The notes beneath the pieces are model-generated. The model was not told where the DNA came from. It did no database searches and saw only the letters and a list, made by a program, of their open reading frames with translations. Source: Dickeya poaceiphila (GTDB taxonomy: Bacteria > Pseudomonadota > Gammaproteobacteria > Enterobacterales > Enterobacteriaceae). From it: DNA of 64,000 bases. Position 1 is the first letter of the stretch. Every line of letters starts with the position of its first letter. The stretch spans positions 372,001 through 436,000 of the forward strand of contig NZ_CP042220.2 of NCBI RefSeq assembly GCF_007858975.2, given 5' to 3'. This document shows, piece by piece, positions 3,785 through 38,877 of the stretch. The translations under genes and the position numbers were made by a program.

Positions 3785-3843
3785 GCGACGATAATTCAGG
3801 AAGTCGCCGATTGGGTTAGGGTGATTGAATTGGCTGTTAGCCG

Positions 3844-4404
3844 CTATTTGCTCAACCGTGAGTCGGTATCCGCCGTGTTGTGGGTGTTGAGATGCAAGAT
3901 TGCTGCAACGCACCGCGCTACTACCTGGTCCAGCGTGTCGTTGATATCCACTGTGATGACATCAGTTTCCGTCTCATCCGGTTCTTCCAGCGCATCAAAC
4001 TGGCTTTGCAGCAGCGCTGTCGGCATAAAATGGCCGGCACGCGCCTGATGGCGTTGCACAATCACCTCAAAACTGCCTTTCAGATAAAGAAATACCAGGC
4101 CGTCGTTGCCTTCGCGCAAGCGGTCACGGTAACGCTTTTTCAGGGCTGAGCAGACAATAATGCCGGTTTCGTTTTTATTCAGCAGGCTGTAAGCGACATC
4201 GTTCAGGCGTTCCAGCCAGGGGGCGCGGTCATCGTCGTTGAGCGGCTGGCCGCCAGCCATTTTCTGAATATTGGCTCTTGGGTGCAGATCGTCGCCATCA
4301 ATGAATCTGGCGTTAATCTCGCGTGCCAGTTGGGCACCTACGCTGGATTTACCGCTGCCGGAAACCCCCATCAAAATAATACGTTGTCCTGACATAATCG
4401 TCAT
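3844..4404 (-). CDS. gntK: Gluconokinase
   Basis: GntK phosphorylates D-gluconate with ATP to 6-phosphogluconate, feeding the pentose-phosphate and Entner-Doudoroff routes in the cytosol. The Walker A motif GVSGSGKS lies near the N-terminus, followed by the DGDDLHP and CSALKKRYRD motifs typical of the family. The product is 186 residues from the ATG at 4404; alternative starts at 4425 and 4395 are possible (E. coli GntK is 175). The usual neighbours gntU and gntR are absent here: a repeat copy follows the stop codon. A GntR-type operator and a CRP-type site lie just upstream, supporting gluconate induction and catabolite control. Confidence 0.93.
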   Translation of the reverse strand: MTIMSGQRIILMGVSGSGKSSVGAQLAREINARFIDGDDLHPRANIQKMAGGQPLNDDDRAPWLERLNDVAYSLLNKNETGIIVCSALKKRYRDRLREGNDGLVFLYLKGSFEVIVQRHQARAGHFMPTALLQSQFDALEEPDETETDVITVDINDTLDQVVARCVAAILHLNTHNTADTDSRLSK

Positions 4405-4458
4405 CGCTCTATCCCAAACGGTCACTTAAATGCTGCGCACGTGTTTTGGACCCTAGCA

Positions 4459-4487
4459 CGTTACCGGCATCATGATACCGGTAACAT
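4459..4487. promoter_or_regulatory. GntR operator(s) upstream of gntK
   Basis: ATGATACCGGTAACAT at 4472-4487 fits the known GntR operator ATGTTA-N4-TAACAT with one mismatch. An overlapping degenerate copy, ACGTTACCGGCATCAT, lies at 4459-4474. They are 55-85 bp upstream of the gntK start, as expected for repression by GntR. Confidence 0.75.
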
Positions 4488-4494
4488 TGTGCAT

Positions 4495-4510
4495 TGTGAT
4501 GTATGTCACG
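4495..4510. promoter_or_regulatory. CRP-type site upstream of gntK
   Basis: TGTGA-TGTATG-TCACG matches the CRP consensus TGTGA-N6-TCACA in nine of ten core positions. It is next to the GntR operators on the promoter-distal side, the arrangement known for gluconate genes. Confidence 0.65.
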
Positions 4511-4650
4511 CCGGGTAAGTATGACCTACAGCCATTACGGTAATGACTTCTGGTGGGGTTGTCAGCGCCGCGGCGTCAGTACGCATTGATGATTGGCGGG
4601 ATATACCCGTTCTCTGCGTTCTCAGGGAAACGGAGAGAACGGGGTGAGGT

Positions 4651-5244
4651 TTACAGCTTCAGGTAGGCCCGAACGCCGTCCAGAAACATTTGGGTGGAGA
4701 GCATCACCAGCACCAACCCCATCAGCCGTTCCAGCGCGTTGACGCCTTTGTCGCCTAACAGCCTCAGGAACAGGTTTGACAACAATAGCACGACCACGGT
4801 GATGGCCCAGGCAATGAATAGCGCCAGCGTCAGATGCGGCAACTGGTTCGGGTACTGGTGGGAGAGCAGCATCAGCGCGGCCAGAATCGACGGTCCGGCC
4901 ACCATCGGGATAGCTAACGGCACCAGAAATGGCTCGTCGCCGGCGGGCAAGCCGCTGGTAAAGCCTTCCTGTGTCGGGAAAATCATGCGGATGGCAATCA
5001 AAAACAACACGATACCGCCGGAAATAGACACGGTTTCGGTACGCAGATTCAGTATCGCCAGAATCTTCTCGCCCGCGAACAGGAACACCAGCATCACGCC
5101 CAGTGCGATGATCATCTCTCGAATCAGCACCACGCGTCGTCGTTTGGGATCAAGATGTTTTAGTACCGACATAAACACCGGCAGATTGCCGAGTGGGTCC
5201 ATAATTAACAGCAACAGGACGGTTGCCGAGATCATTTCAGTCAT
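4651..5244 (-). CDS. yhgN: MarC/YhgN-family inner membrane protein
   Basis: A 197-residue, very hydrophobic protein with about six membrane helices. It matches the MarC (NAAT) family member YhgN: the MDPLGNLPVF motif near the N-terminus and the P-L-A-I-P-M-V-A-G-P-S-I-L segment are characteristic. The substrate is not established in this family; the historical antibiotic-resistance label of MarC is not supported. Its position between gntK and asd is the conserved enterobacterial one. A GAGGAG ribosome-binding site lies about 12 nt before the ATG, slightly long. Confidence 0.9.
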   Translation of the reverse strand: MTEMISATVLLLLIMDPLGNLPVFMSVLKHLDPKRRRVVLIREMIIALGVMLVFLFAGEKILAILNLRTETVSISGGIVLFLIAIRMIFPTQEGFTSGLPAGDEPFLVPLAIPMVAGPSILAALMLLSHQYPNQLPHLTLALFIAWAITVVVLLLSNLFLRLLGDKGVNALERLMGLVLVMLSTQMFLDGVRAYLKL

Positions 5245-5358
5245 GGTGGCGGTAAGCTCCTCTCATCCCAGCCTGTTGTCAGGCTCATTAGGCGTGTTGC
5301 TGAAAACGCCTGAGTCATCGAATAAATTCACTTGCGACTTCTGATACATTTTGTAAGG

Positions 5359-5385
5359 TTGACAGACATCACTTAAAACTATGCT
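5359..5385 (+). promoter_or_regulatory. Candidate asd promoter
   Basis: TTGACA at 5359-5364 and TATGCT at 5380-5385, with a short 15-bp spacer, lie about 57 bp before the asd start. The -35 is consensus; the spacing is suboptimal, so the true -10 could be shifted. Confidence 0.4.
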
Positions 5386-5441
5386 CCCTGCCTGAAACGG
5401 CAGTCGGATTGCTTTTTGTCACCCCAGGCAGGACGGTTACC

Positions 5442-6542
5442 ATGAAAAATGTTGGTTTTATTGGCTGGCGCGGAATGGTCGGTTCGGTACTCATGCAGCG
5501 CATGGTGGAAGAACGCGATTTTGATTTAATCCGCCCGGTATTTTTTTCGACGTCGCAGCACGGCCAATCGGCGCCGGCGCTGGGCGGCCAGCAGGGTGTC
5601 CTGCAGGATGCCTATAATCTGGACGCGCTACGCGCGCTGGATATCATCATCACCTGTCAGGGCGGCGATTATACCAATGAAATCTACCCAAAGCTGCGTG
5701 AAAGTGGCTGGCAAGGGTACTGGATCGACGCAGCATCGTCTCTGCGAATGAAAGATGATGCGATTATTATTCTGGACCCAGTCAACCATAGCGTGATCAA
5801 GTCCGGTCTGGACAAAGGCATCAAAACCTTTGTGGGCGGTAACTGTACCGTCAGCCTGATGCTGATGTCGCTAGGCGGCCTGTTCGCCAACGACCTGGTA
5901 GAGTGGGCATCCGTTGCCACGTATCAGGCGGCGTCCGGCGCGGGCGCGCGTAATATGCGTGAACTGCTGATTCAGATGGGTCAGTTAAACGCAGAAGTCG
6001 CCGGCGAACTGAGCGACCCGGCTTCCGCCATTCTGGATATTGAACGCAAAGTGACGGCGCTGTCACGCGGCGGTCTGGACGTGGAAAACTTCGGCGTGCC
6101 GCTGGCCGGTAGCCTGATTCCGTGGATCGACAAACAACTGGAAAACGGCCAGAGCCGCGAAGAGTGGAAAGGTCAGGCAGAAACTAACAAGATCCTGAAC
6201 ACCGCCAGCACCATTCCGGTGGATGGTCTGTGCGTGCGCATTGGTGCGCTGCGTTGCCACAGCCAGGCTTTCACGCTCAAGTTGAAAAAAGATGTGTCGA
6301 TTGCGGAAATCGAGCAGATGCTGTCAACCCACAATGACTGGGTGAAAGTGGTGCCGAATGACCGTGAAATCACCATGCGTGAACTGACTCCGGCGGCGGT
6401 AACCGGTACGTTGTCCACCCCGGTGGGCCGTCTGCGCAAACTGAATATGGGTCCACAGTACCTGTCTGCCTTCACTGTCGGCGACCAACTGCTGTGGGGC
6501 GCTGCTGAACCGTTGCGCCGTATGCTGCGCATCCTGCTGTAA
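5442..6542 (+). CDS. asd: Aspartate-semialdehyde dehydrogenase
   Basis: Asd reduces aspartyl-beta-phosphate to aspartate-4-semialdehyde with NADPH, the branch point to diaminopimelate/lysine, methionine and threonine. The start at 5442 gives 366 residues (E. coli 367) beginning [14 protein letters not shown], with the Rossmann glycine motif and an AGGA ribosome-binding site. The active-site cysteine is in [10 protein letters not shown] and the substrate-binding histidine in RCHSQAF. It is monocistronic here, with a strong terminator just downstream, and lies between yhgN and the glg operon as in E. coli, except that nikR, csp and btsS are interposed before glgB. Confidence 0.97.
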
Positions 6543-6554
6543 TTTCTGCTGCCT

Positions 6555-6588
6555 AAACGCGCCTTGCCGGGCGCGTTTTACTTTTCTT
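6555..6588 (+). terminator. asd terminator
   Basis: AAACGCGCC and GGCGCGTTT form a 9-bp stem (6555-6563 / 6570-6578) with a 6-nt loop, followed by a U-rich tail, 12 bp past the asd stop. Confidence 0.85.
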
Positions 6589-6756
6589 CACCCTGTCTGG
6601 CAATCATCTGCTGTGCTGCTTGTCTCTCTTTGTCGTGTTAGGGATTTGCGTATCGTTTTGCGTTGAGTCACGATCATCATGACCAACCCCGGCATAATGG
6701 GGCGACCTGCGTGGCGCCACGCCGGAAGATTCTTTTCGCTTTTCTGTGAGGCTGAC

Positions 6757-7176
6757 ATGCAACGACTGACTATTTCTCTGGATGACTCACTGGCTGAAGC
6801 GCTGGATGCCCTGATGCTGCGCAAAGGCTATGCCAACCGTTCGGAGGCATTTCGTGACATGTTGCGGCGCGAACTGGGTGAAATGACGGCGGCGCAGGAT
6901 AAAGACGCAGAGTGCGTAGCGGTGCTGAGCTATGTGTACGACCACCATGAACGCCAGTTGTCGAGCCGACTGGCCGGTATGCAGCATGAACACCATCACC
7001 TGACCGTCTCTACCATGCATACTCATCTCAGCCATGACGAGTGTGTGGAAACCGTGATTCTGCGTGGCCCGACCGAGCGTGTAGAACGGTTTGCCGCCTC
7101 AGTCATCGCCCAGACGGGGGTGCGCCATGGCCGGTTGAATCTGATTCCGATGGCGCAGGCGGCGAATGAAATATGA
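6757..7176 (+). CDS. nikR: Nickel-responsive regulator NikR
   Basis: A 139-residue ribbon-helix-helix regulator that binds Ni(II) and then represses nickel uptake genes. The N-terminal MQRLTISLDDSLAEAL segment is the DNA-binding strand and helix. The C-terminal ACT-like domain carries the Ni ligands at His77, His88, His90 and Cys96, one position offset from E. coli NikR (His76, His87, His89, Cys95). The start at 6757 was chosen because it has a GAGG site 6 nt upstream and matches the family; an in-frame upstream start at 6679 would add an unlikely 26-residue extension. No nikABCDE operon is adjacent, so its target is elsewhere. Confidence 0.95.
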   Translation: MQRLTISLDDSLAEALDALMLRKGYANRSEAFRDMLRRELGEMTAAQDKDAECVAVLSYVYDHHERQLSSRLAGMQHEHHHLTVSTMHTHLSHDECVETVILRGPTERVERFAASVIAQTGVRHGRLNLIPMAQAANEI

Positions 7177-7558
7177 CCGGCAGCGTACACACAAGCAGCA
7201 GAATGTGTGGACCCGGCTGACGCATAGGGTGAGATGCTAGCGGACCAGACGCGGGTCGTGCCGGGAAATTGCTGGGTCAGGATTCATCAACTGTATGAAT
7301 TATAAATAATATAAAATATTTTCATGCCGTAATAATACATAATGCTTGCTTTCAGGTCCGATGAATGCGTTAATAACCAAACGGTTTGTTAGTCAGACCT
7401 ATTTATGCCAAGCATTTTACTAAAGTAGTCCTCAGTCCAAGCGTTATCCTCAGATATCACTTCCCCTGAATCTCTTTTTTTCTTGCTCATAAGTATTTCC
7501 TGCATTGCAGACCCCTGTTGCCCTTAAACGGGCTGGAAAAAAATTACGAGGTAGTATG
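7177..7558. other. Intergenic region and probable long csp leader
   Basis: There is no coding signal here. It contains AT-rich sequence (about 7285-7350) likely to hold the csp promoter, and a long leader before the cold-shock gene, as in cspA-type mRNAs where the leader folds in a temperature-dependent way. No exact cold-box motif was identified by eye. Confidence 0.4.
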
Positions 7559-7771
7559 ATGTCTAATAAAATGACTGGTTCAGTAAAATGGTTTAACGAA
7601 TCTAAAGGTTTTGGCTTTATCAGCCCGGCTGATGGCAGCAAAGACGTATTCGTACATTTCTCTGCGATTCAGAGCGACAGCTTCAAAACGCTGTACGAAG
7701 GCCAGAAAGTGGAATTTGTTATCGGCAACGGTCCGAAAGGTCCTTCTGCTGAGAACGTAGTAGGGCTGTAA
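7559..7771 (+). CDS. Cold-shock protein, CspA family
   Basis: A 70-residue single OB-fold nucleic-acid chaperone that binds single-stranded RNA and DNA, starting [23 protein letters not shown]1 (KGFGFI) and RNP2 (VFVHF) are intact. The sequence mixes features of CspA/CspB (N-terminus) and CspC/CspE (NESKGFGF), so a specific letter is not assigned. Two adjacent ATGs (7556 and 7559) follow a GAGG site; the second gives the usual length. A canonical terminator lies 86 bp past the stop. Confidence 0.93.
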
Positions 7772-7856
7772 TTTCACAGGTCATCCTCACCGACGATAGC
7801 GAAGATGGCGTTAGCCGGAGCAGTGACGTGATGTGATACCCTGATTTGCCTGAGAG

Positions 7857-7886
7857 CGGCTTCCCCAAAGGGGAAGCCGTTTTTTA
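7857..7886 (+). terminator. csp terminator
   Basis: CGGCTTCCCC / GGGGAAGCCG is a perfect 10-bp stem with an AAA loop, followed by six T residues. It may also serve the convergent btsS-type gene. Confidence 0.9.
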
Positions 7887-7926
7887 TTTCAGGTGTGCCG
7901 TTGTGGTAAGCGGGTTTCGCGCTACG

Positions 7927-9612
7927 TTATTCCACCCGCAACGGTACTCGCACCCGCACGCGGGTAAAACGTTCCGGCTCGCTGGTGACGGTGATGCCGT
8001 AGTGATGGCCGTACCGCGCCTTGATGCGCCGATCCACCAGATTCATACCCAGTCCATCGCCGCCGTTACGCGGGTTATAAGTGCCGGCGTTGTCCTCAAT
8101 CGTCAGTTCCAGCATGTTGGCATAGGCGCGGGCTTCAATGCGCAGATGCCCATTGTCCAGCATTTGGGAGATACCGTGCTTGATGGCGTTTTCCACCAGC
8201 GGCTGCAAGGAAAAGGCAGGCAATCTGGCTGCTCTGAGCGATGACGGAATAGCTATCTCTACCGTCAGCAAATTGGTGAAACGTGCCTTTTCAATATCGA
8301 GATAGGCGCTGATGTGCTCCAGCTCATCGTTGAGTGCGACTTCGTCGCCACTGCGTTTGAGGTTTTTGCGAAAAAAGGTCGATAGCGACAGTACCAGTTG
8401 GCGCGCCTGATCCGGATTACGACGAATCACCGCCGACAGGGTATTGAGGGCATTGAACAGGAAATGCGGATTGACCTGCGCATGTAGCAGTTTGATTTCG
8501 GATTGTGCCAACAGTTGTTTCTGCTGCTCGAAGCGTCCGGCGAAAATTTGGGCTGACAGCAGATGGCCGATGCCTTCACCCAGCAGCCGGTTAATACGGG
8601 AAAATAGCTTATTCTTCGGTTCATACAGTTTGATGGTGCCGATTACCCGTTGTTCTTCGCCGCGCAGCGGGATCACCAGTGCGGAACCGAGTTGACAGTG
8701 CGATGAGATAGCACAGCAAAAAGGTGCGTTGTTACTGTCAGCGTATACGACCTGATTGCTATCGATAGCCTGATGCGTGTGGGGGGAGGTAATCAGCGAA
8801 CCGGCCAGATGGTGGTCATCGCCGGTGCCGATGAATGCCAGCAGTTTTTCCCGATCAGTGATGGCGACAGCGCCAACGCCCAGCTCTTCATACAAAATGC
8901 GCGCCACCTGCATACTGGTGCCGGAATTAAACCCTTCCCGCAATATGCCTTCGGCTCTGGCGGCAATCTGCAAAGCCCGCGTAGAGAATGTCGATGTGTA
9001 GGTTTCAAATACTGCCCGGCGGTCCAGCAGGATGCGCATAAACATGGCAGCACCGATGCTGTTGGTGACTATCATCGGTAAAGCAATGCTTTTGACCAGC
9101 GCCAGCGCATCGCCAAACGGTCGTGATAACAGCAGGATAATACTCATCTGCAGCACTTCCACCACCAGGGTTGTGGTGGCGATGACCAGTGGCTGAAACA
9201 GCAGGTCGATGCGATAGCGTCGGGTCATGTAACGGTGCAGCAGGCCACCTGCCAATCCTTCCATGATGGTGGAAAACATACAGGCCAGCGCGGTCATGCC
9301 ACCCAGCGAGTAACGATGCAAACCACCGGTCAATCCGACCAGAATCCCTACCGATGGCCCACCCAATACGCCGCCCAGCAGCGCGCCAATCGCGCGGGTA
9401 TTGGCGATGGAGTCACCAATGTGCAGACCGAACCAGGTGCCAAGGATGCAGAACATGGAGAACGTCAGGTAGCAGATCAGTCTATGCGGCAGAGTGATGG
9501 TGACCTGCGTTAGCGGGATGAACAGGGGTGTTTTGCTTAAAAGATAGGCAATAACCAAATGGACGCATGTTTGTTGCAGCAATGACAGAATCAAATCAAC
9601 CTGACTGATCAT
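7927..9612 (-). CDS. btsS: BtsS/YehU-type LytS-family sensor histidine kinase
   Basis: A 561-residue membrane sensor kinase. Residues ~1-200 form the multi-helix 5TM-LYT sensor domain, with the QQTCVHLVIAYLLSKTPLFI opening and the GGVLGGPSVGILVGLTGG segment seen in BtsS. A GAF-like region follows, then the His_kinase domain with HAQVNPHFLFNALNTL around the phospho-acceptor His and a DNAG ATP-binding motif near the end. In E. coli BtsS responds to extracellular pyruvate and signals through BtsR to induce btsT. No LytTR-type response regulator is adjacent: the next gene downstream is a convergent csp. The partner must therefore be encoded elsewhere. Confidence 0.85.
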   Translation of the reverse strand: MISQVDLILSLLQQTCVHLVIAYLLSKTPLFIPLTQVTITLPHRLICYLTFSMFCILGTWFGLHIGDSIANTRAIGALLGGVLGGPSVGILVGLTGGLHRYSLGGMTALACMFSTIMEGLAGGLLHRYMTRRYRIDLLFQPLVIATTTLVVEVLQMSIILLLSRPFGDALALVKSIALPMIVTNSIGAAMFMRILLDRRAVFETYTSTFSTRALQIAARAEGILREGFNSGTSMQVARILYEELGVGAVAITDREKLLAFIGTGDDHHLAGSLITSPHTHQAIDSNQVVYADSNNAPFCCAISSHCQLGSALVIPLRGEEQRVIGTIKLYEPKNKLFSRINRLLGEGIGHLLSAQIFAGRFEQQKQLLAQSEIKLLHAQVNPHFLFNALNTLSAVIRRNPDQARQLVLSLSTFFRKNLKRSGDEVALNDELEHISAYLDIEKARFTNLLTVEIAIPSSLRAARLPAFSLQPLVENAIKHGISQMLDNGHLRIEARAYANMLELTIEDNAGTYNPRNGGDGLGMNLVDRRIKARYGHHYGITVTSEPERFTRVRVRVPLRVE

Positions 9613-34014: not shown

Positions 34015-34788
34015 ATGGGATCACTGCACTGGCAAACTGAAGGGGAAGGCAGATGTGAACTTGTGATGCTGCACGGCTGGGGAATGAATTCGCAGGTGTG
34101 GAACAGCATCGTCGTGCAGCTTGCCCCGCATTTTCGGCTGCACCGGGTGGATTTGCCAGGTTATGGTCAGAGTCAGGCATTTGGGTCGATGCCGCTGATC
34201 GACATGGTGCAGCAGGTGCTGGCGCAGGCGCCAGAGCGGGCGGTGTGGTTAGGCTGGTCGCTGGGGGGGCTGGTGGCCAGCCAGGCGGCGCTGAGTGCGC
34301 CGGAGCGGGTCAGCGCGCTGATCACACTGGCGTCGTCACCGTGTTTTGAGGAACGTGATGGCTGGCCGGGCATTCGTCCACAAGTGTTGTCCGGTTTTCA
34401 GCGTTTGCTGAGTGATGATTTCTTCGGCACTATCGAGCGATTTCTGGCATTGCAGACACTGGGGACGGAAAGCGCCAGAAAAGATGCGCGTGCGTTGAAG
34501 CTGGCGTTGTCGGGCCAGCCATCGCCTTCCACCGAGGTGCTGACCGCCGGGCTGGGGATTTTGCGCGATACCGACCTGCGCGAGCCGCTTCGCACGCTCA
34601 CCATGCCGTTCCTGCGGCTGTACGGCGCACTGGACGGGTTAGTGCCGCGCAAAGTCGCCGCACTGATGGATGAGCAGTATCCGCACTCCACTTCGGTGGT
34701 GATACCGAAAGCCGCCCACGCGCCGTTTATCTCTCATCCGGAGATGTTTGTGGAGCAGGTGGTGGGGTTTGTGGGGGAAAACCTATAG
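34015..34788 (+). CDS. bioH: Pimeloyl-ACP methyl ester carboxylesterase
   Basis: BioH hydrolyses pimeloyl-ACP methyl ester, ending the pimelate stage of biotin synthesis. The 257-residue alpha/beta hydrolase has Ser82 in the GWSLGG nucleophile elbow, an Asp in YGALDGLVP and His in PKAAHAPF, as in the E. coli Ser-Asp-His triad. It is divergent from gntX and is the last core gene before the AT-rich microcin island. Confidence 0.97.
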
Positions 34789-34939
34789 AGAGTATACGCA
34801 GGCGGGTATGTAAAAGGTGAACGGTGCCTCTTTGTTGTAGGGTAAGGGGCAGGTTGTACAAAAAATAGTTACGGATATGCTATTTGCATAAGGTTATGAA
34901 AATTACCTTTTAAAAATGAATAGTATATCTTATTGGCTT

Positions 34940-35698
34940 TTATATAGTGGCAACAAAATACTCAATAAATCCATGCTTTCGTCTAGTTTCAGGTGACGCG
35001 GCTCTTTCATGTGTAATCAAATCGTCAATGTCATGTGAAAGAAATACATCTTTATAAAGGTTTGGGTAAGCATTAATAATAAATTCTTTATATTTTTCAT
35101 TTTTGTCCACATCCTTTTTGGCTATAAATAGTCCACGTCCATCAAAGAAGACTTTTTTACTAGGTAAAGCATTAGCCAGCTCTTCCAGATCGCAATCAAG
35201 ATGTTCCTCATCACCGTGTTGAATAATATGATAAGAAGCACTGCTTTCCTTATAATTTGGAATTCCTATAATCAGGTTTTTCTTCGCGACTCGTGCCATT
35301 TCTGTCAAAATATTGAACTGTTCTTCTTTACTGTAATGCTCAATCATTCCAATAGAAAACACGCAATCTATGCTGTTATCGTCAAAGGGAAGTGAGAACG
35401 CATTTCCTTTTAAAATTACAGCATTTGAATTTAACTGTTTCTTAAGAAATTGCGAGTATTCAATAGCCATGTCATCATAATCTAACCCATAAGATATGAC
35501 ATTATCATATTTGCTTAAGTAATGAATAGAGAGTGAGCCGCCACAACCGACCTCAAGGTAGCTATTATTATTCATTGTGGCTATTTTTTCACAAAATAGC
35601 TTTTGTGCATAAACTTTCACAGCTGCAAAATCATCTATTGAATATCCATTTTTAATGTTTTCTTTGAAAATTTCAAATTGTTTTTCTAAATAATTCAT
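34940..35698 (-). CDS. SAM-dependent methyltransferase-fold tailoring enzyme of the microcin operon
   Basis: A 252-residue class I SAM enzyme: motif I YLEVGCGG at residues 47-54, acidic residue Asp73 in YGLDYDD, and SIGMIEHY at 115-122, giving a Methyltransf_11-like core. Its ATG abuts the TAA of the exporter gene and GGAGAG ends 7 nt upstream, so it is co-translated with the microcin operon. In classical microcin C, MccD is a SAM-fold enzyme that transfers an aminocarboxypropyl group to the phosphate. In Yersinia and Bacillus relatives a carboxy-SAM-dependent enzyme carboxymethylates the nucleobase. This protein could do either, or simple methylation; no mccE decarboxylase or cxSAM synthase gene accompanies it. 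AT-rich, with many ATA and AGA codons. Confidence 0.8.
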   Translation of the reverse strand: MNYLEKQFEIFKENIKNGYSIDDFAAVKVYAQKLFCEKIATMNNNSYLEVGCGGSLSIHYLSKYDNVISYGLDYDDMAIEYSQFLKKQLNSNAVILKGNAFSLPFDDNSIDCVFSIGMIEHYSKEEQFNILTEMARVAKKNLIIGIPNYKESSASYHIIQHGDEEHLDCDLEELANALPSKKVFFDGRGLFIAKKDVDKNEKYKEFIINAYPNLYKDVFLSHDIDDLITHERAASPETRRKHGFIEYFVATI

Positions 35699-36910
35699 TT
35701 ACATGCTCTCCTCTGTGATGACGATAGATGAATTCCCCTTTCCTAATTTCATAAGCAACGATGAGATAGAGGCAAGGACAGTTAAACCGACTAAAACCGA
35801 AGTTAAACACAGCCATCCGTATCGTTGAGTCAGCAGCACGACTCCTGGCATTAAAACCAAAATAACTAATTTAGATAGTGAAGATAGCAGTGAATCAAAT
35901 GTTGATCTCAGTTCAGATGAAATCAGAGAATGGTAATGAGCTCTGAGAGACATAGTTAGTGTCTGGTTTGCACCGAACATAATAACCAATGAAACAGGAA
36001 TAAGAAGATTGTATTGCAATAATCCTAATAAGCAGATTATATTGGAGAGCCATAACAGTATCATGCTATAAAAATAAAGTTTTGCATTGCTTTTTACGTT
36101 GGAGCTGATCCAACCTGAAATTGATTGAGCAAGTAATATGAATAGAAATAAAAAACCATAAAAGGTATCGTTGGGAGAATAGAATGTCAAACTGTCACTG
36201 ACGAAAGGCTGCCAATATTGTAGGATTATCTGGAAGTAGACCATATTGGCCGCTAAAGCAATAAATATAAGATGAAGTGAAGAAGATTTGTTATTGATAA
36301 CATTATGGATTTTTTTTAAGTCCTCCCAAATAGAGGATTTTTCAAGTCTTTTCCTCACTACCGGTTTAGGTAAGGACCATGCCAGAGCCATGACAATAAG
36401 CAGGCACCCTGAGCCAGCTAGAATCCACACTAGTCTATCATTGTATGAAGAAAGATAGGAACCCAAAAGCGCGCTGAAAGCCATAAATAAATACTGGTAC
36501 TTGTTGTTTTTTCCAAGAATCTTATGAATTTCTTCTTTTTCATTATCCTGAGTATTGTCTATGAGATATGAAAAATAGACTCCACCAAATATACTTAACG
36601 AGAAAGAGTTGAATACTTCGGCTAAATAAAATATGGCTTTACTTTCGGCTATTCCTGTTATAATCAACCACAACCCACCAAAGATAACCGATAAAATCAA
36701 CATGTACTTGCGGCTGATTTTATCGGCTAAATATGATGAAGGAATATCAAGCATAAAAAATATCACGGATTGCATAGTTTTCATGAATGCAATATCGATT
36801 AAGCTAATTCCATGATTTAATAGATAGATAGCAGACGTTGCACCTATGAGCATTCTGAATGAATTAAATAATACATTGAATAAAATGATTTTTTTCATAG
36901 GCGAGAACAT
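35699..36910 (-). CDS. mccC: MFS exporter in the MccC position
   Basis: A 403-residue protein with about 12 hydrophobic helices and an MFS A-loop (SSYLADKISRKYML), close in length to E. coli MccC. MccC-type pumps export the finished peptide-nucleotide and give partial self-protection. I chose the ATG at 36910 (MFSPMKKIILF) because GAGAGG lies 8 nt upstream; a GTG at 36919 and an ATG at 36898, the latter overlapping the mccB-type stop as ATGA, are alternatives. It overlaps the nucleotidyltransferase gene and abuts the methyltransferase gene, so the three are one operon. Because no mccE/F immunity gene is present, this pump is the most visible candidate for immunity. Confidence 0.83.
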   Translation of the reverse strand: MFSPMKKIILFNVLFNSFRMLIGATSAIYLLNHGISLIDIAFMKTMQSVIFFMLDIPSSYLADKISRKYMLILSVIFGGLWLIITGIAESKAIFYLAEVFNSFSLSIFGGVYFSYLIDNTQDNEKEEIHKILGKNNKYQYLFMAFSALLGSYLSSYNDRLVWILAGSGCLLIVMALAWSLPKPVVRKRLEKSSIWEDLKKIHNVINNKSSSLHLIFIALAANMVYFQIILQYWQPFVSDSLTFYSPNDTFYGFLFLFILLAQSISGWISSNVKSNAKLYFYSMILLWLSNIICLLGLLQYNLLIPVSLVIMFGANQTLTMSLRAHYHSLISSELRSTFDSLLSSLSKLVILVLMPGVVLLTQRYGWLCLTSVLVGLTVLASISSLLMKLGKGNSSIVITEESM

Positions 36911-37944
36911 ACTAAGCACCTCTCGTTTTTGGGAATCAATTGCTCTTCAATTTTAATAGTTGAGGAATGTATTCCTATTCTTTTGTTTTTACTTAAAATT
37001 TCACCAAAGCCACCTAAAAACTTAATGATATCGCCAAATGCATACGAAGCTGCTACGCCATTCACTCCGGGAAACGTTGCAGCTTTGAAATCACTATTAA
37101 TTATTTTTAAATAATCACTTAAACTATCTTTTTGCGTATAATCTGGTGTGATTTCTGCACATTTAAAACAGGAGGTTACCCTGGGGATAAAAAATGGTCC
37201 GACTACGGAGATGTCATTAATATAACCTACATTGATATAAGGCTGATTATGCGCGACACAATATGAATTTACCCAATCCATTAAGCTAAAAGGATTGTCA
37301 GCGGAAATAATAAAGATGTCTGATTTTGGTATTTTATATAAATCATCTTCAGAAGTTATAGTACTTTCAATTATATCTATAGCAACATCATTTCGTCGTT
37401 TTAAAATCTCACGCTTCAATACCTCTGTCTTCGAATTTCCAACGTCTCCCTCTGTAAACAGGACCTGGCGAGTGAGGTTACTTAACTCGACTTTATCATT
37501 GTCTACTAATGTTATTTTCCCAATACCAGATGTTGCTAATAGATAGGATAGATGATTACCTATCCCTCCACATCCAATAAGGGTGACAGAAGAATTCTGG
37601 ATTTTTTTCTGAACGTCTTTGGAGTTAGCACCCATATAATTATAGTATAGGCTATTTCGGCTATACCTTTCATTGCTGTTGAAGGCATTATTTTCCATTA
37701 AACTATTGTTATCGAAAAGAAATTGAATACATTTCTCGATCTCAGAAATCGGTATTTCAGGGAAATTTTTCTTTGCTTTTTCAAGGAAGCTATTTGAATC
37801 TGTCGGAGTTTTCCAGAAACTTGCTATTTTGACGATGTTTTCAAAGTCTACTCTATCGTTAAAAATTATCTGTTTAGAGCCTACACCGAAGACTCCTCCT
37901 TTTTTATAACGCCCGACTTGAATATATTTACCAGTGTAAAGCAT
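36895..37944 (-). CDS. mccB: MccB-type peptide nucleotidyltransferase
   Basis: A 349-residue ThiF/E1-superfamily enzyme (E. coli MccB is 350). The N-terminal ~80 residues correspond to the MccB peptide clamp, followed by NERYSRNSLYYNYMGAN, very like the E. coli stretch. The ATP-binding site has GCGGIG at 124-129, then LVDNDKVELSNLTRQ with Asp148, Asp150, Asn156 and Arg159, and the adenylation Asp216 in SADN. Two Cys pairs, 259/262 (CFKC) and 343/346 (CLVC), form the zinc site. MccB converts the C-terminal Asn of the MccA heptapeptide to a succinimide and then a stable P-N linked nucleotide. Overall resemblance to E. coli MccB runs along the whole length. Confidence 0.92.
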   Translation of the reverse strand: MLYTGKYIQVGRYKKGGVFGVGSKQIIFNDRVDFENIVKIASFWKTPTDSNSFLEKAKKNFPEIPISEIEKCIQFLFDNNSLMENNAFNSNERYSRNSLYYNYMGANSKDVQKKIQNSSVTLIGCGGIGNHLSYLLATSGIGKITLVDNDKVELSNLTRQVLFTEGDVGNSKTEVLKREILKRRNDVAIDIIESTITSEDDLYKIPKSDIFIISADNPFSLMDWVNSYCVAHNQPYINVGYINDISVVGPFFIPRVTSCFKCAEITPDYTQKDSLSDYLKIINSDFKAATFPGVNGVAASYAFGDIIKFLGGFGEILSKNKRIGIHSSTIKIEEQLIPKNERCLVCSRL

Positions 37945-37964
37945 ATGTTAAAGTTCCATTTAAT

Positions 37965-37996
37965 GAAAGAGAAAGACGGGGAGGACCTTCCCCGTC
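37965..37996 (-). terminator. Terminator-like hairpin between mccA and mccB
   Basis: GACGGGGA (37975-37982) pairs perfectly with TCCCCGTC (37989-37996) around a 6-nt loop. In the minus-strand transcript it is followed by UUUCUCUUUC. It starts 14 nt after the heptapeptide stop codon and ends 30 nt before the mccB start. In E. coli a terminator in this position makes mccA mRNA far more abundant than the full operon mRNA, with ribosome occupancy modulating read-through. Confidence 0.85.
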
Positions 37997-38010
37997 GATT
38001 TGGAGTGCAA

Positions 38011-38034
38011 TTAGTTGCTGGATACGCTAATCAT
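38011..38034 (-). CDS. mccA: MccA-like heptapeptide precursor, MISVSSN
   Basis: A seven-codon gene plus TAA encodes Met-Ile-Ser-Val-Ser-Ser-Asn. E. coli MccA is also seven residues, MRTGNAN, and the final Asn is the residue that MccB converts to the nucleotide linkage. AAGGAGG lies exactly 5 nt before the ATG, among the best ribosome-binding sites in the window. The gene is followed by a terminator hairpin and then by the MccB-type gene, the order known for microcin C operons. The sequence of residues 2-6 is unlike MRTGNAN apart from small polar residues. It is far below the size that gene finders report, so it would be missed by routine annotation. Confidence rests on the combined position, length, terminal Asn and ribosome-binding site. 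Confidence 0.88.
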   Translation of the reverse strand: MISVSSN

Positions 38035-38090
38035 TATATCCTCCTTAATATTTATTTAATTAACGAACACTATCGTTTGGTCCTGTTTTC

Positions 38091-38119
38091 ATTTAATGAG
38101 TTTTTCTTCTTTTTTTCAA
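38091..38119 (-). promoter_or_regulatory. Candidate microcin operon promoter
   Basis: TTGAAA (38114-38119) and TTAAAT (38091-38096) are separated by exactly 17 bp on the minus strand, placing a start site about 50 nt before mccA. The -10 matches the consensus in four of six positions. The surrounding A/T-rich DNA offers other possibilities. Confidence 0.45.
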
Positions 38120-38877
38120 TAGTAAATGTTGAGTACTTTTTCTTGTTTCTTTTATGAAAATATTTCAAGTTGTAAAATTGATTGTTTTATTTTTTAATTT
38201 TCTGTGTGTTATATTTAATTTGCACCGTCATTGAACAAAAAAATAAACAAAAAACAATAATAATGTCGCTTTACGACAATGGCGATTGTAATTATTTTAA
38301 ACATTTTCCCTGAGAAAACATCAGTTTCCCTATAAGATTGAGATTAGCAATGCTTGTGGAGTTAAGACTCCAAACATAGTTTATAATTTATAAAAATTTG
38401 ATTTTTACAGAGGAAAAAAGTGCCACATTATATTAAATGGACTTTCTCACTGGGAGGTTTTTTTTTGATGAGAATAAAGTTGCCTTGGCATGTTACACAT
38501 AACTTTGCATACGCGCTGTAATGCTGTCTTACTGCGGAAGACATAGAGAACAATAGTTACTTGAGATATGTCGATCGGATAGGCAATCAACATGTTCTGC
38601 TTGTAAGAGGCAGATCAATTGGGGGACATTCCAGCTTGTATGCCATGACGGATGATCCTTGCCGTGTCAGAGAGTACGGATGTTCATCAGGACTCACGAA
38701 GCCGGATATATGTGTGTGACTACGTTGTCAGAAAAAATCAGCCCGTGCTTGCGTCGGGTCGGTGTCCATATAAGTTATTTAGCATAAGCACATCATTCAG
38801 GCATGACTCGCCAGTCACTGCATCTAATTTTTAAATACAGGGTTCAGACTGGATAGCCTGAACCCCGACAAGAGCTA
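38120..38877. other. Non-coding right flank of the microcin island
   Basis: About 38120-38460 is very AT-rich with long A and T runs, a typical H-NS-type target (inference). From ~38465 base composition rises towards the chromosomal average. A frame on the plus strand open from 38523 to 38720, including a short TTG-initiated stretch, resembles no protein I know and has no ribosome-binding site; it may be a gene remnant at the island border. No tRNA, integrase or terminal repeat was seen. Confidence 0.5.
38832..38865 (-). terminator. tex terminator
   Basis: GGGTTCAG (38840-38847) and CTGAACCC (38858-38865) form an 8-bp stem with a 10-nt loop, 13 bp past the tex stop and followed on the minus strand by a moderately U-rich tail. 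Confidence 0.65.

What the first reader, a model, noticed from the sequence alone, without database searches (positions are those of the whole stretch)
34940..38119. A compact microcin C-like Trojan-horse antibiotic operon between bioH and tex
Four genes in one minus-strand unit: a 7-codon precursor (MISVSSN), an MccB-type nucleotidyltransferase with intact GCGGIG, adenylation and zinc motifs, an MFS exporter in the MccC position, and a SAM-fold tailoring enzyme. The unit is AT-rich against GC-rich flanks and occupies the place where E. coli K-12 carries feoABC. The length match to E. coli MccB (349 versus 350) and the terminal Asn of the peptide make a peptide-nucleotide product very likely. 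I do not know of a described system with this peptide and this minimal gene set.
Basis: partly seen in the sequence, partly recalled or inferred. Interest (0 to 1): 0.95.

Follow-up and report, generated by a model that had tools for sequence, protein, structure and literature searches.

The report
Microcin C-type antibiotic operon in Dickeya
A plant-associated Dickeya bacterium carries a small, recently acquired set of genes that almost certainly makes a Trojan-horse antibiotic of the known microcin C kind, with one added enzyme that the standard version lacks.

Summary
The minus-strand unit 38034-34940 holds mccA (MISVSSN), mccB, mccC and a SAM-dependent enzyme ("D"), in a Dickeya genome. 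MccB is about 47% identical to E. coli MccB, keeps the E1-type residues, and groups with MccBs, not ThiF/MoeB. A minigene with strong SD, 7 codons and final Asn precedes mccB in 11 of 13 loci scanned; the nearest relatives have MISVSSN, MISIASN and MISSGSN. A hairpin follows mccA, as in E. coli. D. oryzae ZYY5 carries the same cassette (91.6% DNA identity) at another site, while its tex-bioH gap is nearly empty, so the cassette moves. New, but modest: D resembles MccD no more than unrelated methyltransferases do; the operon has no MccE or MccF. A stand-alone MccF homologue (60% identical to E. coli MccF) lies elsewhere in the genome, as in 7 of 9 Dickeya genomes searched. Best reading: a new variant of the McC family, a peptidyl-nucleotide tailored by an unrelated SAM enzyme, with self-immunity perhaps supplied in trans. 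Product, nucleotide and D's reaction are not shown.

The parts
38040..38046 (-). strong Shine-Dalgarno AAGGAGG of mccA
   Evidence: sequence; same in D. oryzae L009
38011..38034 (-). mccA minigene, MISVSSN, precursor peptide ending in Asn
   Evidence: relatives MISVSSN, MISIASN, MISSGSN
37975..37996 (-). hairpin GACGGGGAAGGTCCTCCCCGTC followed by T-rich tract, between mccA and mccB (putative terminator)
   Evidence: minimum-energy hairpins at the same place in 6 other loci
36895..37944 (-). mccB, 349 aa, ThiF/E1-type peptide nucleotidyltransferase
35699..36898 (-). mccC, MFS exporter, 399 aa from the ATG that overlaps the mccB stop
   Evidence: sequence; MFS_1 E 1.1e-15; 47-50% identical to the MFS after mccB in G138 and G361, 27-35% over parts to those of E. 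coli, G368, G350
34940..35698 (-). 'D': class I SAM-dependent enzyme, 252 aa, no closer to MccD than unrelated methyltransferases are
   Evidence: 93% identical in D. oryzae; dN 0.030, dS 0.20 by NG86
34908..38653 (.). stretch shared with the mcc cassette of D. oryzae ZYY5 (91.6% DNA identity)
34779..38836 (.). approximate insert relative to the short tex-bioH gap of G394 (taken to be D. oryzae ZYY5)

Best explanation
It is a horizontally acquired microcin C-type operon. Ribosomes make the heptapeptide fMISVSSN from a minigene whose short transcript is favoured by a terminator hairpin behind it. MccB activates the C-terminal Asn with one NTP, closes it to a succinimide and links it to a nucleoside monophosphate through an N-P bond. 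MccC exports the product. Enzyme D adds a SAM-derived group, most likely a methyl, to the peptidyl-nucleotide (about 0.5 for a plain methyl on this product). Target cells import the peptide, digest it and release an aspartyl-nucleotide analogue that blocks AspRS. The producer is protected by export and perhaps by the stand-alone chromosomal MccF homologue. Shown here by sequence: genes, order, family of A, B and C, hairpin, presence at two different sites in two Dickeya genomes, purifying selection on B, C and D, presence of the MccF homologue. Inferred: every chemical step, the identity of the nucleotide, termination at the hairpin, the role of D, uptake, target and immunity.
For: MccB: best PDB match is E. 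coli MccB, E 7.9e-103, about 47% identity to the E. coli plasmid copies. RYSRN, GCGGxGN, D148/D150, NLTRQ, K172, D216 and Cys 259/262/343/346 are invariant in the 8-row alignment, whose G138 and G361 rows are only the downstream 269-270 aa. The tree separates MccB from ThiF/MoeB/TcdA at 97/96. A 7-codon SD-preceded ORF ending in Asn was found before mccB in 11 of 13 loci scanned, among them the two E. coli plasmids with the known MRTGNAN as positive control. A hairpin behind mccA is in the minimum-energy fold of 7 of 7 loci folded. D. oryzae has the same cassette elsewhere. dN/dS by NG86 about 0.10 for B and C and 0.15 for D; by YN00 0.13, 0.18 and 0.18. The MccF homologue is 60% identical to E. 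coli MccF, and PDB MccF chains score 427-457 bits against 147 for the next S66 group.
Against: No product, expression or activity data. Over the roughly 100-nt stretch folded, the energy beats shuffles by more than 2 SD in only 5 of 7 loci, and in G350 the centroid fold lacks the full hairpin; terminator-like sites in the region, 4 found against 2.2 (sd 1.4) expected, are not clearly in excess. D has no close homologue in the searches made outside the two Dickeya cassettes, so its reaction cannot be read from relatives, and its AlphaFold model failed (pLDDT 39.6). The MccF homologue is also in 5 of 7 Dickeya genomes without mcc, so it did not come with the operon and its link to immunity is only plausible. 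Two related MccB genes (G138, G361) have an in-frame stop, so such operons can decay.
Confidence: 0.85

Rival explanations
1. D does the MccD reaction after all: it transfers 3-amino-3-carboxypropyl from SAM to the phosphoramidate, and without MccE the group stays carboxylated.
For: D sits at the mccD position directly behind mccC and is a class I SAM enzyme of similar size, 252 against 267 aa. Both hit Methyltransf_11/25/31. An MccD profile gives D 23 bits (26 for the D. oryzae copy) against 3.5 for the one control methyltransferase.
Against: The same profile gives MccDs 542-562 bits, and D keeps 31 of 144 MccD-invariant columns, the control 29 of 144. Unrelated methyltransferases match E. 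coli MccD better than D does: MitM 43 bits, LahSB 36 bits against 27.7 bits for D (other program and scoring). MccD (5fcd) is absent from the 32 PDB matches of D at E up to 1 with the single sequence and from the 32 at E up to 10 with the profile. The operon has no decarboxylase.
Confidence: 0.12
2. D is a self-immunity enzyme: it methylates the processed or intact compound (for example the free Asp carboxylate) or a host component, making the producer resistant.
For: No mccE or mccF is in the operon. Many mcc clusters carry an immunity gene (PMC9239234, passages). LahSB (6uak) is among the best PDB matches of D; that LahSB methylates a RiPP C-terminus is recalled.
Against: A general MccF homologue is already present in the genome. 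The McC immunity enzymes named in the passages read are an acetyltransferase, two peptidases and a phosphoramidase, no methyltransferase. The LahSB match is weak and covers the SAM-binding core only (E 6e-8, residues 42-144).
Confidence: 0.2
3. The operon is a decaying or silent remnant that makes nothing.
For: AT-rich insert with no expression data; relatives in G138 and G361 have broken mccB.
Against: All four reading frames are intact, and B, C and D are under purifying selection against the D. oryzae copy (dN 0.025-0.030, dS 0.20-0.31, NG86). mccA, its SD and the hairpin stem-loop are identical between the two.
Confidence: 0.06
4. MccB-like enzyme of another ThiF-type RiPP pathway (not a peptide-nucleotide), for example thiolactone or indolylamide formation.
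For: ThiF-like RiPP enzymes with other chemistry exist (PMC12250964 passages; PMC12150305, search listing with start of abstract only).
Against: Close match to E. coli MccB over nearly its whole length (residues 4-347), a 7-aa precursor ending in Asn, hairpin and MFS exporter as in McC.
Confidence: 0.04

Closest known systems
E. coli microcin C7/C51 operon mccABCDEF (MccC7-H22 plasmid NC_010257.1; ATCC 25922 plasmid NZ_CP009074.1)
   Same: 7-codon minigene with strong SD, mccB at about 47% identity, MFS mccC, SAM enzyme in fourth place; hairpin behind mccA (ATCC 25922 copy folded)
   Different: Peptide MISVSSN instead of MRTGNAN; D is not MccD; no MccE; mccF is not in the operon but a 60% homologue lies about 0.98 Mb away on the chromosome
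   Same: Closest MccB found outside Dickeya (63-64% over the downstream reading frame) and peptides of the same MIS..SN form, MISIASN and MISSGSN
   Different: Neither has D; G361 has a GNAT acetyltransferase after mccC; both mccB frames are broken by a stop
mccABCDE operons of G368 and G350 (unnamed)
   Same: 7-aa precursors MEHTTNN and MDHSMNN, MccB 43-44% identical
   Different: Carry an mccD (57-59% identical to E. coli MccD) and a 588-593 aa frame in the mccE place
Minimal mccABC clusters of Helicobacter pylori and Borrelia plasmids
   Same: MccB + MFS with a 7-codon precursor ahead, MKLSYRN and MRGKTLN
   Different: No SAM enzyme behind the MFS gene in the two records read; distant MccB, about 31-33% identity
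Carboxymethyl-cytidine McCs of Bacillus amyloliquefaciens and Yersinia pseudotuberculosis
   Same: Extra SAM-type tailoring beside MccB (PMC12250964 passages)
   Different: There the precursors are 19 and 11 aa and carboxymethylation involves a MccB C-terminal domain (Bacillus) and MccS; here MccB has no C-terminal extension and D is the only further gene

Membership tests
microcin C-type peptide-nucleotide RiPP cluster | short precursor ORF with strong SD, C-terminal Asn, near mccB | tested here: met
   MISVSSN with AAGGAGG; conserved form in relatives
microcin C-type peptide-nucleotide RiPP cluster | ThiF-like enzyme of the MccB clade with intact catalytic and zinc residues | tested here: met
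   the role of the residues is recalled from the E1/MoeB family
microcin C-type peptide-nucleotide RiPP cluster | export pump gene | tested here: met
   MFS_1 E 1.1e-15 and 47-50% identity to the MFS genes of two other mcc loci
microcin C-type peptide-nucleotide RiPP cluster | terminator hairpin between mccA and mccB (as in E. coli) | tested here: met
   hairpin 37996-37975 with T-rich tail; termination itself not tested
microcin C-type peptide-nucleotide RiPP cluster | product is a peptide linked to a nucleotide by an N-P bond and inhibits AspRS | not testable with these tools
   needs mass spectrometry and growth assays
E. coli-type aminopropylated McC (mccABCDE) | MccD homologue | tested here: not met
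   D: 23 bits against 542-562 for MccDs, 31/144 invariants; best genome-wide MccD hit E 3e-4
E. coli-type aminopropylated McC (mccABCDE) | MccE (PLP decarboxylase + GNAT) | tested here: not met
   none in the operon; genome has only weak separate hits to the two halves, best E 1.2e-6
E. coli-type self-immunity | MccF serine carboxypeptidase | tested here: inconclusive
   stand-alone homologue at G000:C1:1390255-1391247, 60% identity, but not in the operon and activity untested
carboxymethyl-cytidine McC (Bam/Yps type) | carboxymethyltransferase (MccB C-terminal domain) plus MccS, longer precursor | tested here: not met
   MccB 349 aa without extension, 7-aa precursor, a single SAM gene; D was not compared directly with MccS

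The most novel reading that the evidence does not exclude
The Dickeya operon makes a third tailored class of microcin C: a heptapeptidyl-nucleotide modified by a SAM enzyme unrelated to MccD or MccS. The new group could be a methyl on the phosphoramidate, ribose, base or Asp carboxylate. Immunity comes from a near-core genomic MccF rather than from the mobile cassette.
Probability: 0.5. Interest if true: 0.6.

Novelty: new variant of a known kind. Interest (0 to 1): 0.45.

Why it matters
McC-type compounds are Trojan-horse inhibitors of AspRS, and their decorations affect potency and immunity. A SAM enzyme unrelated to MccD points to a testable new decoration on a system where the rest is well understood. 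The case also bears on an idea that PMC9239234 says "has not been explicitly checked" (passage read): that minimal mcc operons live in hosts whose genome supplies MccF-like or other immunity from stand-alone genes. Both mcc-bearing Dickeya genomes searched carry such a gene, although so do most mcc-free ones (2 of 2 and 5 of 7). The producer is a crop-associated genus in which my searches of the open-licence library showed no described microcin C (of the 120 papers only 30 were listed).

Tried and rejected
Rejected: MccB as housekeeping ThiF/MoeB (the genome has other MoeB-, ThiF- and TcdA-like genes). D as MccD. D as a phage or plasmid gene with close relatives: no match in phages, none confirmed in viral contigs, and in plasmids only 8 records with distant methyltransferase matches covering 42-45% of D. 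D was not sought in the genome-contig collection, whose one scan went to MccB, nor in the genus by itself.

Led nowhere: the AlphaFold model of D from a 2-row alignment (pLDDT 39.6), so no fold search was made. Promoter scan: 18 found against 17.1 expected by shuffles, no information. PADLOC and PHROGs matches were to other systems, to a general methyltransferase or to families without known function. Megablast of the operon against the E. coli genomes: no match. The first fold of the E. coli locus used wrong coordinates inside mccB (last item, z 0.41) and was repeated at the right place. MccB in viral contigs: one distant locus, L043, not studied. Literature: "MISVSSN" 0 papers; "Dickeya"+"microcin C" 2 papers, listing only, on efflux systems and SbmA/BacA transporters; "MccF"+"Dickeya" 0. 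A D. zeae genome paper (PMC8386352, passages) mentions an antiSMASH "bacteriocin" cluster in the strains it compares except EC1, type not named in the passage, and has no "microcin".
Full report
THE OBSERVATION. The minus strand of the window reads, from tex towards bioH: an AT-rich upstream stretch; AAGGAGG at 38046-38040; ATGATTAGCGTATCCAGCAACTAA (MISVSSN) at 38034-38011; a GC-rich hairpin at 37996-37975 followed by TTTCTCTTT; then mccB (349 aa), mccC (399 aa from the ATG at 36898; one search lists a longer GTG-started frame of 406 aa) and D (252 aa), packed without gaps. The mccB stop overlaps the mccC start as ATGA, and D starts on the base after the mccC stop. GC is about 28-38% against mostly 50-63% in the neighbouring flanks. 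The flanks are tex (Tex domains) and a bioH-like alpha/beta hydrolase.

THE HOST. The window's genome is one 4.3-Mb contig. G394, placed by the tool in the same genus, has its match on a contig of 327,125 bases, the length of NZ_ML762922.1 of Dickeya oryzae ZYY5, which carries the same cassette. I take G394 to be that strain and the genus to be Dickeya; the species of the window was not determined.

IS THE MINIGENE REAL? The pattern "strong SD, 3-9 nt, ATG, five codons, Asn codon, stop" is found at one ATG only in 64 kb on both strands. It arose in 2 of 2000 first-order Markov simulations of one strand of the insert. A search upstream of mccB in other genomes gives an SD-preceded heptapeptide ending in Asn in 11 of the 13 loci scanned: MISVSSN (window and D. 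oryzae), MISIASN (G138), MISSGSN (G361), MEHTTNN (G368), MDHSMNN (G350), MRTGNAN (two E. coli plasmids, the known MccA), MRGRRLN (G597), MRGKTLN (Borrelia), MKLSYRN (H. pylori). None was found in the Salmonella plasmid and Macrococcus loci. Longer SD-flagged candidates also appeared in L018, L019 and L021 and a 5-aa internal start in L045. Loci with only distant ThiF-like matches (L010-L016, L043) were not scanned. The Ile2-Ser3...Ser6-Asn7 form is shared by the window, D. oryzae, G138 and G361. A review read in passages says substitutions at Thr3 and Asn7 of E. coli MccA dramatically impair MccB activity (PMC12250964); Ser3 here is a hydroxyl residue too.

MccB. The best PDB relatives are E. 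coli MccB structures (E 7.9e-103; next molecule 1.1e-24). The 8-row alignment, in which the G138 and G361 rows are only the downstream 269-270 aa, keeps RYSRN (93-97), GCGGxGN (124-130), D148/D150, NLTRQ (156-160), K172, SAD (214-216) and four Cys (259, 262, 343, 346) in every row. The role of these residues as E1/MoeB-type catalytic and zinc sites is recalled from the family. In a 19-row maximum-likelihood tree, 8 MccB rows and 6 housekeeping rows (three of the genome's own ThiF-family genes plus three from plasmids) are parted at 97/96; five other rows were in no group. TcdA, Macrococcus and Salmonella rows have long branches, and several rows have deviating composition, so their exact place is unsure. 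The window's MccB is sister to D. oryzae (100/99), then to G138 (82/75) and G361 (86/86).

HAIRPIN. A hairpin right behind mccA is in the minimum-energy fold of 7 of 7 loci folded (window, D. oryzae, G368, G350, ATCC 25922, G138, G361). Over the roughly 100-nt stretch, folding is better than shuffles by more than 2 SD in 5 of 7 (G350 -0.21 and G138 -1.36 are not), and in G350 the centroid lacks the full hairpin. The consensus scan found 4 terminator-like sites against 2.2 (sd 1.4) by shuffles, so the scan alone proves nothing. In E. coli a terminator lies at this place and ribosome binding to mccA induces termination, so that the peptide is made in excess over the enzymes (PMC6495379, passages). 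The same control is likely here but not shown.

ENZYME D. D hits general class I methyltransferase models (Methyltransf_11 E 1.2e-14) and is far below the cut-off of each of the 25 NCBIfam models shown (of 26). Against MccD: BLASTP 27.7 bits over 69 residues of the SAM core. A profile of three MccDs gives D 23 bits (26 for the D. oryzae copy) against 542-562 for MccDs and 3.5 for the one control methyltransferase; D keeps 31 of 144 MccD-invariant columns, the control 29 of 144. So D lies somewhat nearer MccD than that control, but MccD itself finds unrelated enzymes at 43 (MitM) and 36 bits (LahSB) in the PDB. E. coli MccD is in the PDB (5fcd) but is not among the 32 sequences that D finds at E up to 1, nor among the 32 found with the two-row profile at E up to 10. 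Outside the two Dickeya cassettes I found no close relative: order search 1 of 394 genomes (own) at 1e-15; phylum search 2 of 393 at 1e-12, own plus one 32% partial match; phages none; plasmids 8 distant partial hits; viral contigs none. These are samples, not all genomes. D is under purifying selection between the two Dickeya copies (NG86 dN 0.030, dS 0.20; B 0.029/0.309; C 0.025/0.256; YN00 ratios 0.18, 0.13 and 0.18 in the same order). D is therefore probably functional and so far specific to this cassette, but its reaction is open. I favour methyl transfer to the peptidyl-nucleotide, because D lacks MccD features and no decarboxylase partner is present; this is inference. The structure model failed.

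MOBILITY. MccB at E below 1e-30 or 1e-45 is sporadic: 5 of 392 genomes of the family, 2 of 9 of the genus, 2 of 394 of the order, 1 of 369 of the class, each count including the window's own genome (the samples overlap). A scan of genome contigs with the window protein gave 8 loci, of which only D. oryzae is close (93%); the others are 28-36% over parts. In D. oryzae ZYY5 the cassette (91.6% identity over window 38653-34908) lies in a stretch with a topoisomerase, DUF3577, DUF3275 and DUF3085 genes and transposase genes; that such genes mark integrative elements is recalled. In G394 the tex-bioH gap is only about 0.13 kb. The gap is short (0.1-0.2 kb) in 4 of 9 Dickeya genomes searched (G394, G208, G392, G393) and holds cargo in 5 of 9: mcc here; an Hcp-like gene plus a DUF1493 gene in G282 and a like arrangement in G097; single AT-richer frames in G395 and G344. 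So this site takes up cargo repeatedly.

IMMUNITY. The operon has no mccE or mccF. Genome-wide, E. coli MccE finds only weak hits (best E 1.2e-6) and MccD E 3e-4. E. coli MccF finds one gene with 60% identity (G000:C1:1390255-1391247). In the PDB it scores 427-457 bits with MccF chains and 147 or less with other S66 peptidases. At 1e-30 it is in 7 of 9 Dickeya genomes: both with mcc and 5 of 7 without. This is compatible with the proposal in PMC9239234 (passages) that minimal operons use stand-alone immunity genes. With these numbers no association can be claimed, because the gene is nearly core.

WHAT IS KNOWN. Minimal mccABC operons, diverse precursors ending in Asn, and variable extra genes are described (PMC12250964, passages; PMC6495379, passages and section 6; PMC9239234, passages; PMC7157772, passages). 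The two decorations described in what I read are aminopropyl (MccD + MccE) and carboxymethyl. I found no paper naming MISVSSN or a Dickeya microcin C, within an open-licence library and without the key supplementary table. I therefore call it a new variant of a known kind, not a new kind.

Noticed in passing
L056:6598-8403 (G282) and L057:655-2643 (G097): The same tex-bioH gap in two other Dickeya genomes holds an AT-rich Hcp-like gene (T6SS_HCP) opposite a DUF1493 gene and a 153-aa gene, so the site seems a hotspot for competition-type cargo (Pfam was run on the G282 proteins only).
   Followed up: partly
L018 (NZ_CP009074.1, E. coli ATCC 25922, 24-kb plasmid): The widely used control strain ATCC 25922 carries an mccABCDEF-like set with an intact MRTGNAN minigene on a 24-kb IncX1 plasmid.
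   Followed up: no
L020 (G138) and L021 (G361): The two closest non-Dickeya mccB genes each have an in-frame stop in the 5' part while mccA, hairpin and mccC look open; G361 also has a GNAT acetyltransferase behind mccC.
   Followed up: partly
L065:4244-5308(-) (match G000:C1:1390255-1391247): Stand-alone MccF homologue beside a LysR-like and an aminotransferase-like frame (my reading of the translations), present in 7 of 9 Dickeya genomes searched.
   Followed up: yes
L046 (Salmonella plasmid pRM11060-2, 3917-6225) and L047 (Macrococcus plasmid, 3833-7942): Deep-branching MccB-like genes with no SD-preceded minigene ending in Asn found upstream; Macrococcus has arginase and isochorismatase family genes behind it. 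Possibly other ThiF-type RiPP pathways.
   Followed up: no
L049 (Mycetohabitans rhizoxinica megaplasmid, 358-2651): MoaD/ThiS-like protein, MoeB-like enzyme, SAM methyltransferase and a YcaO gene side by side, an unusual combination.
   Followed up: no
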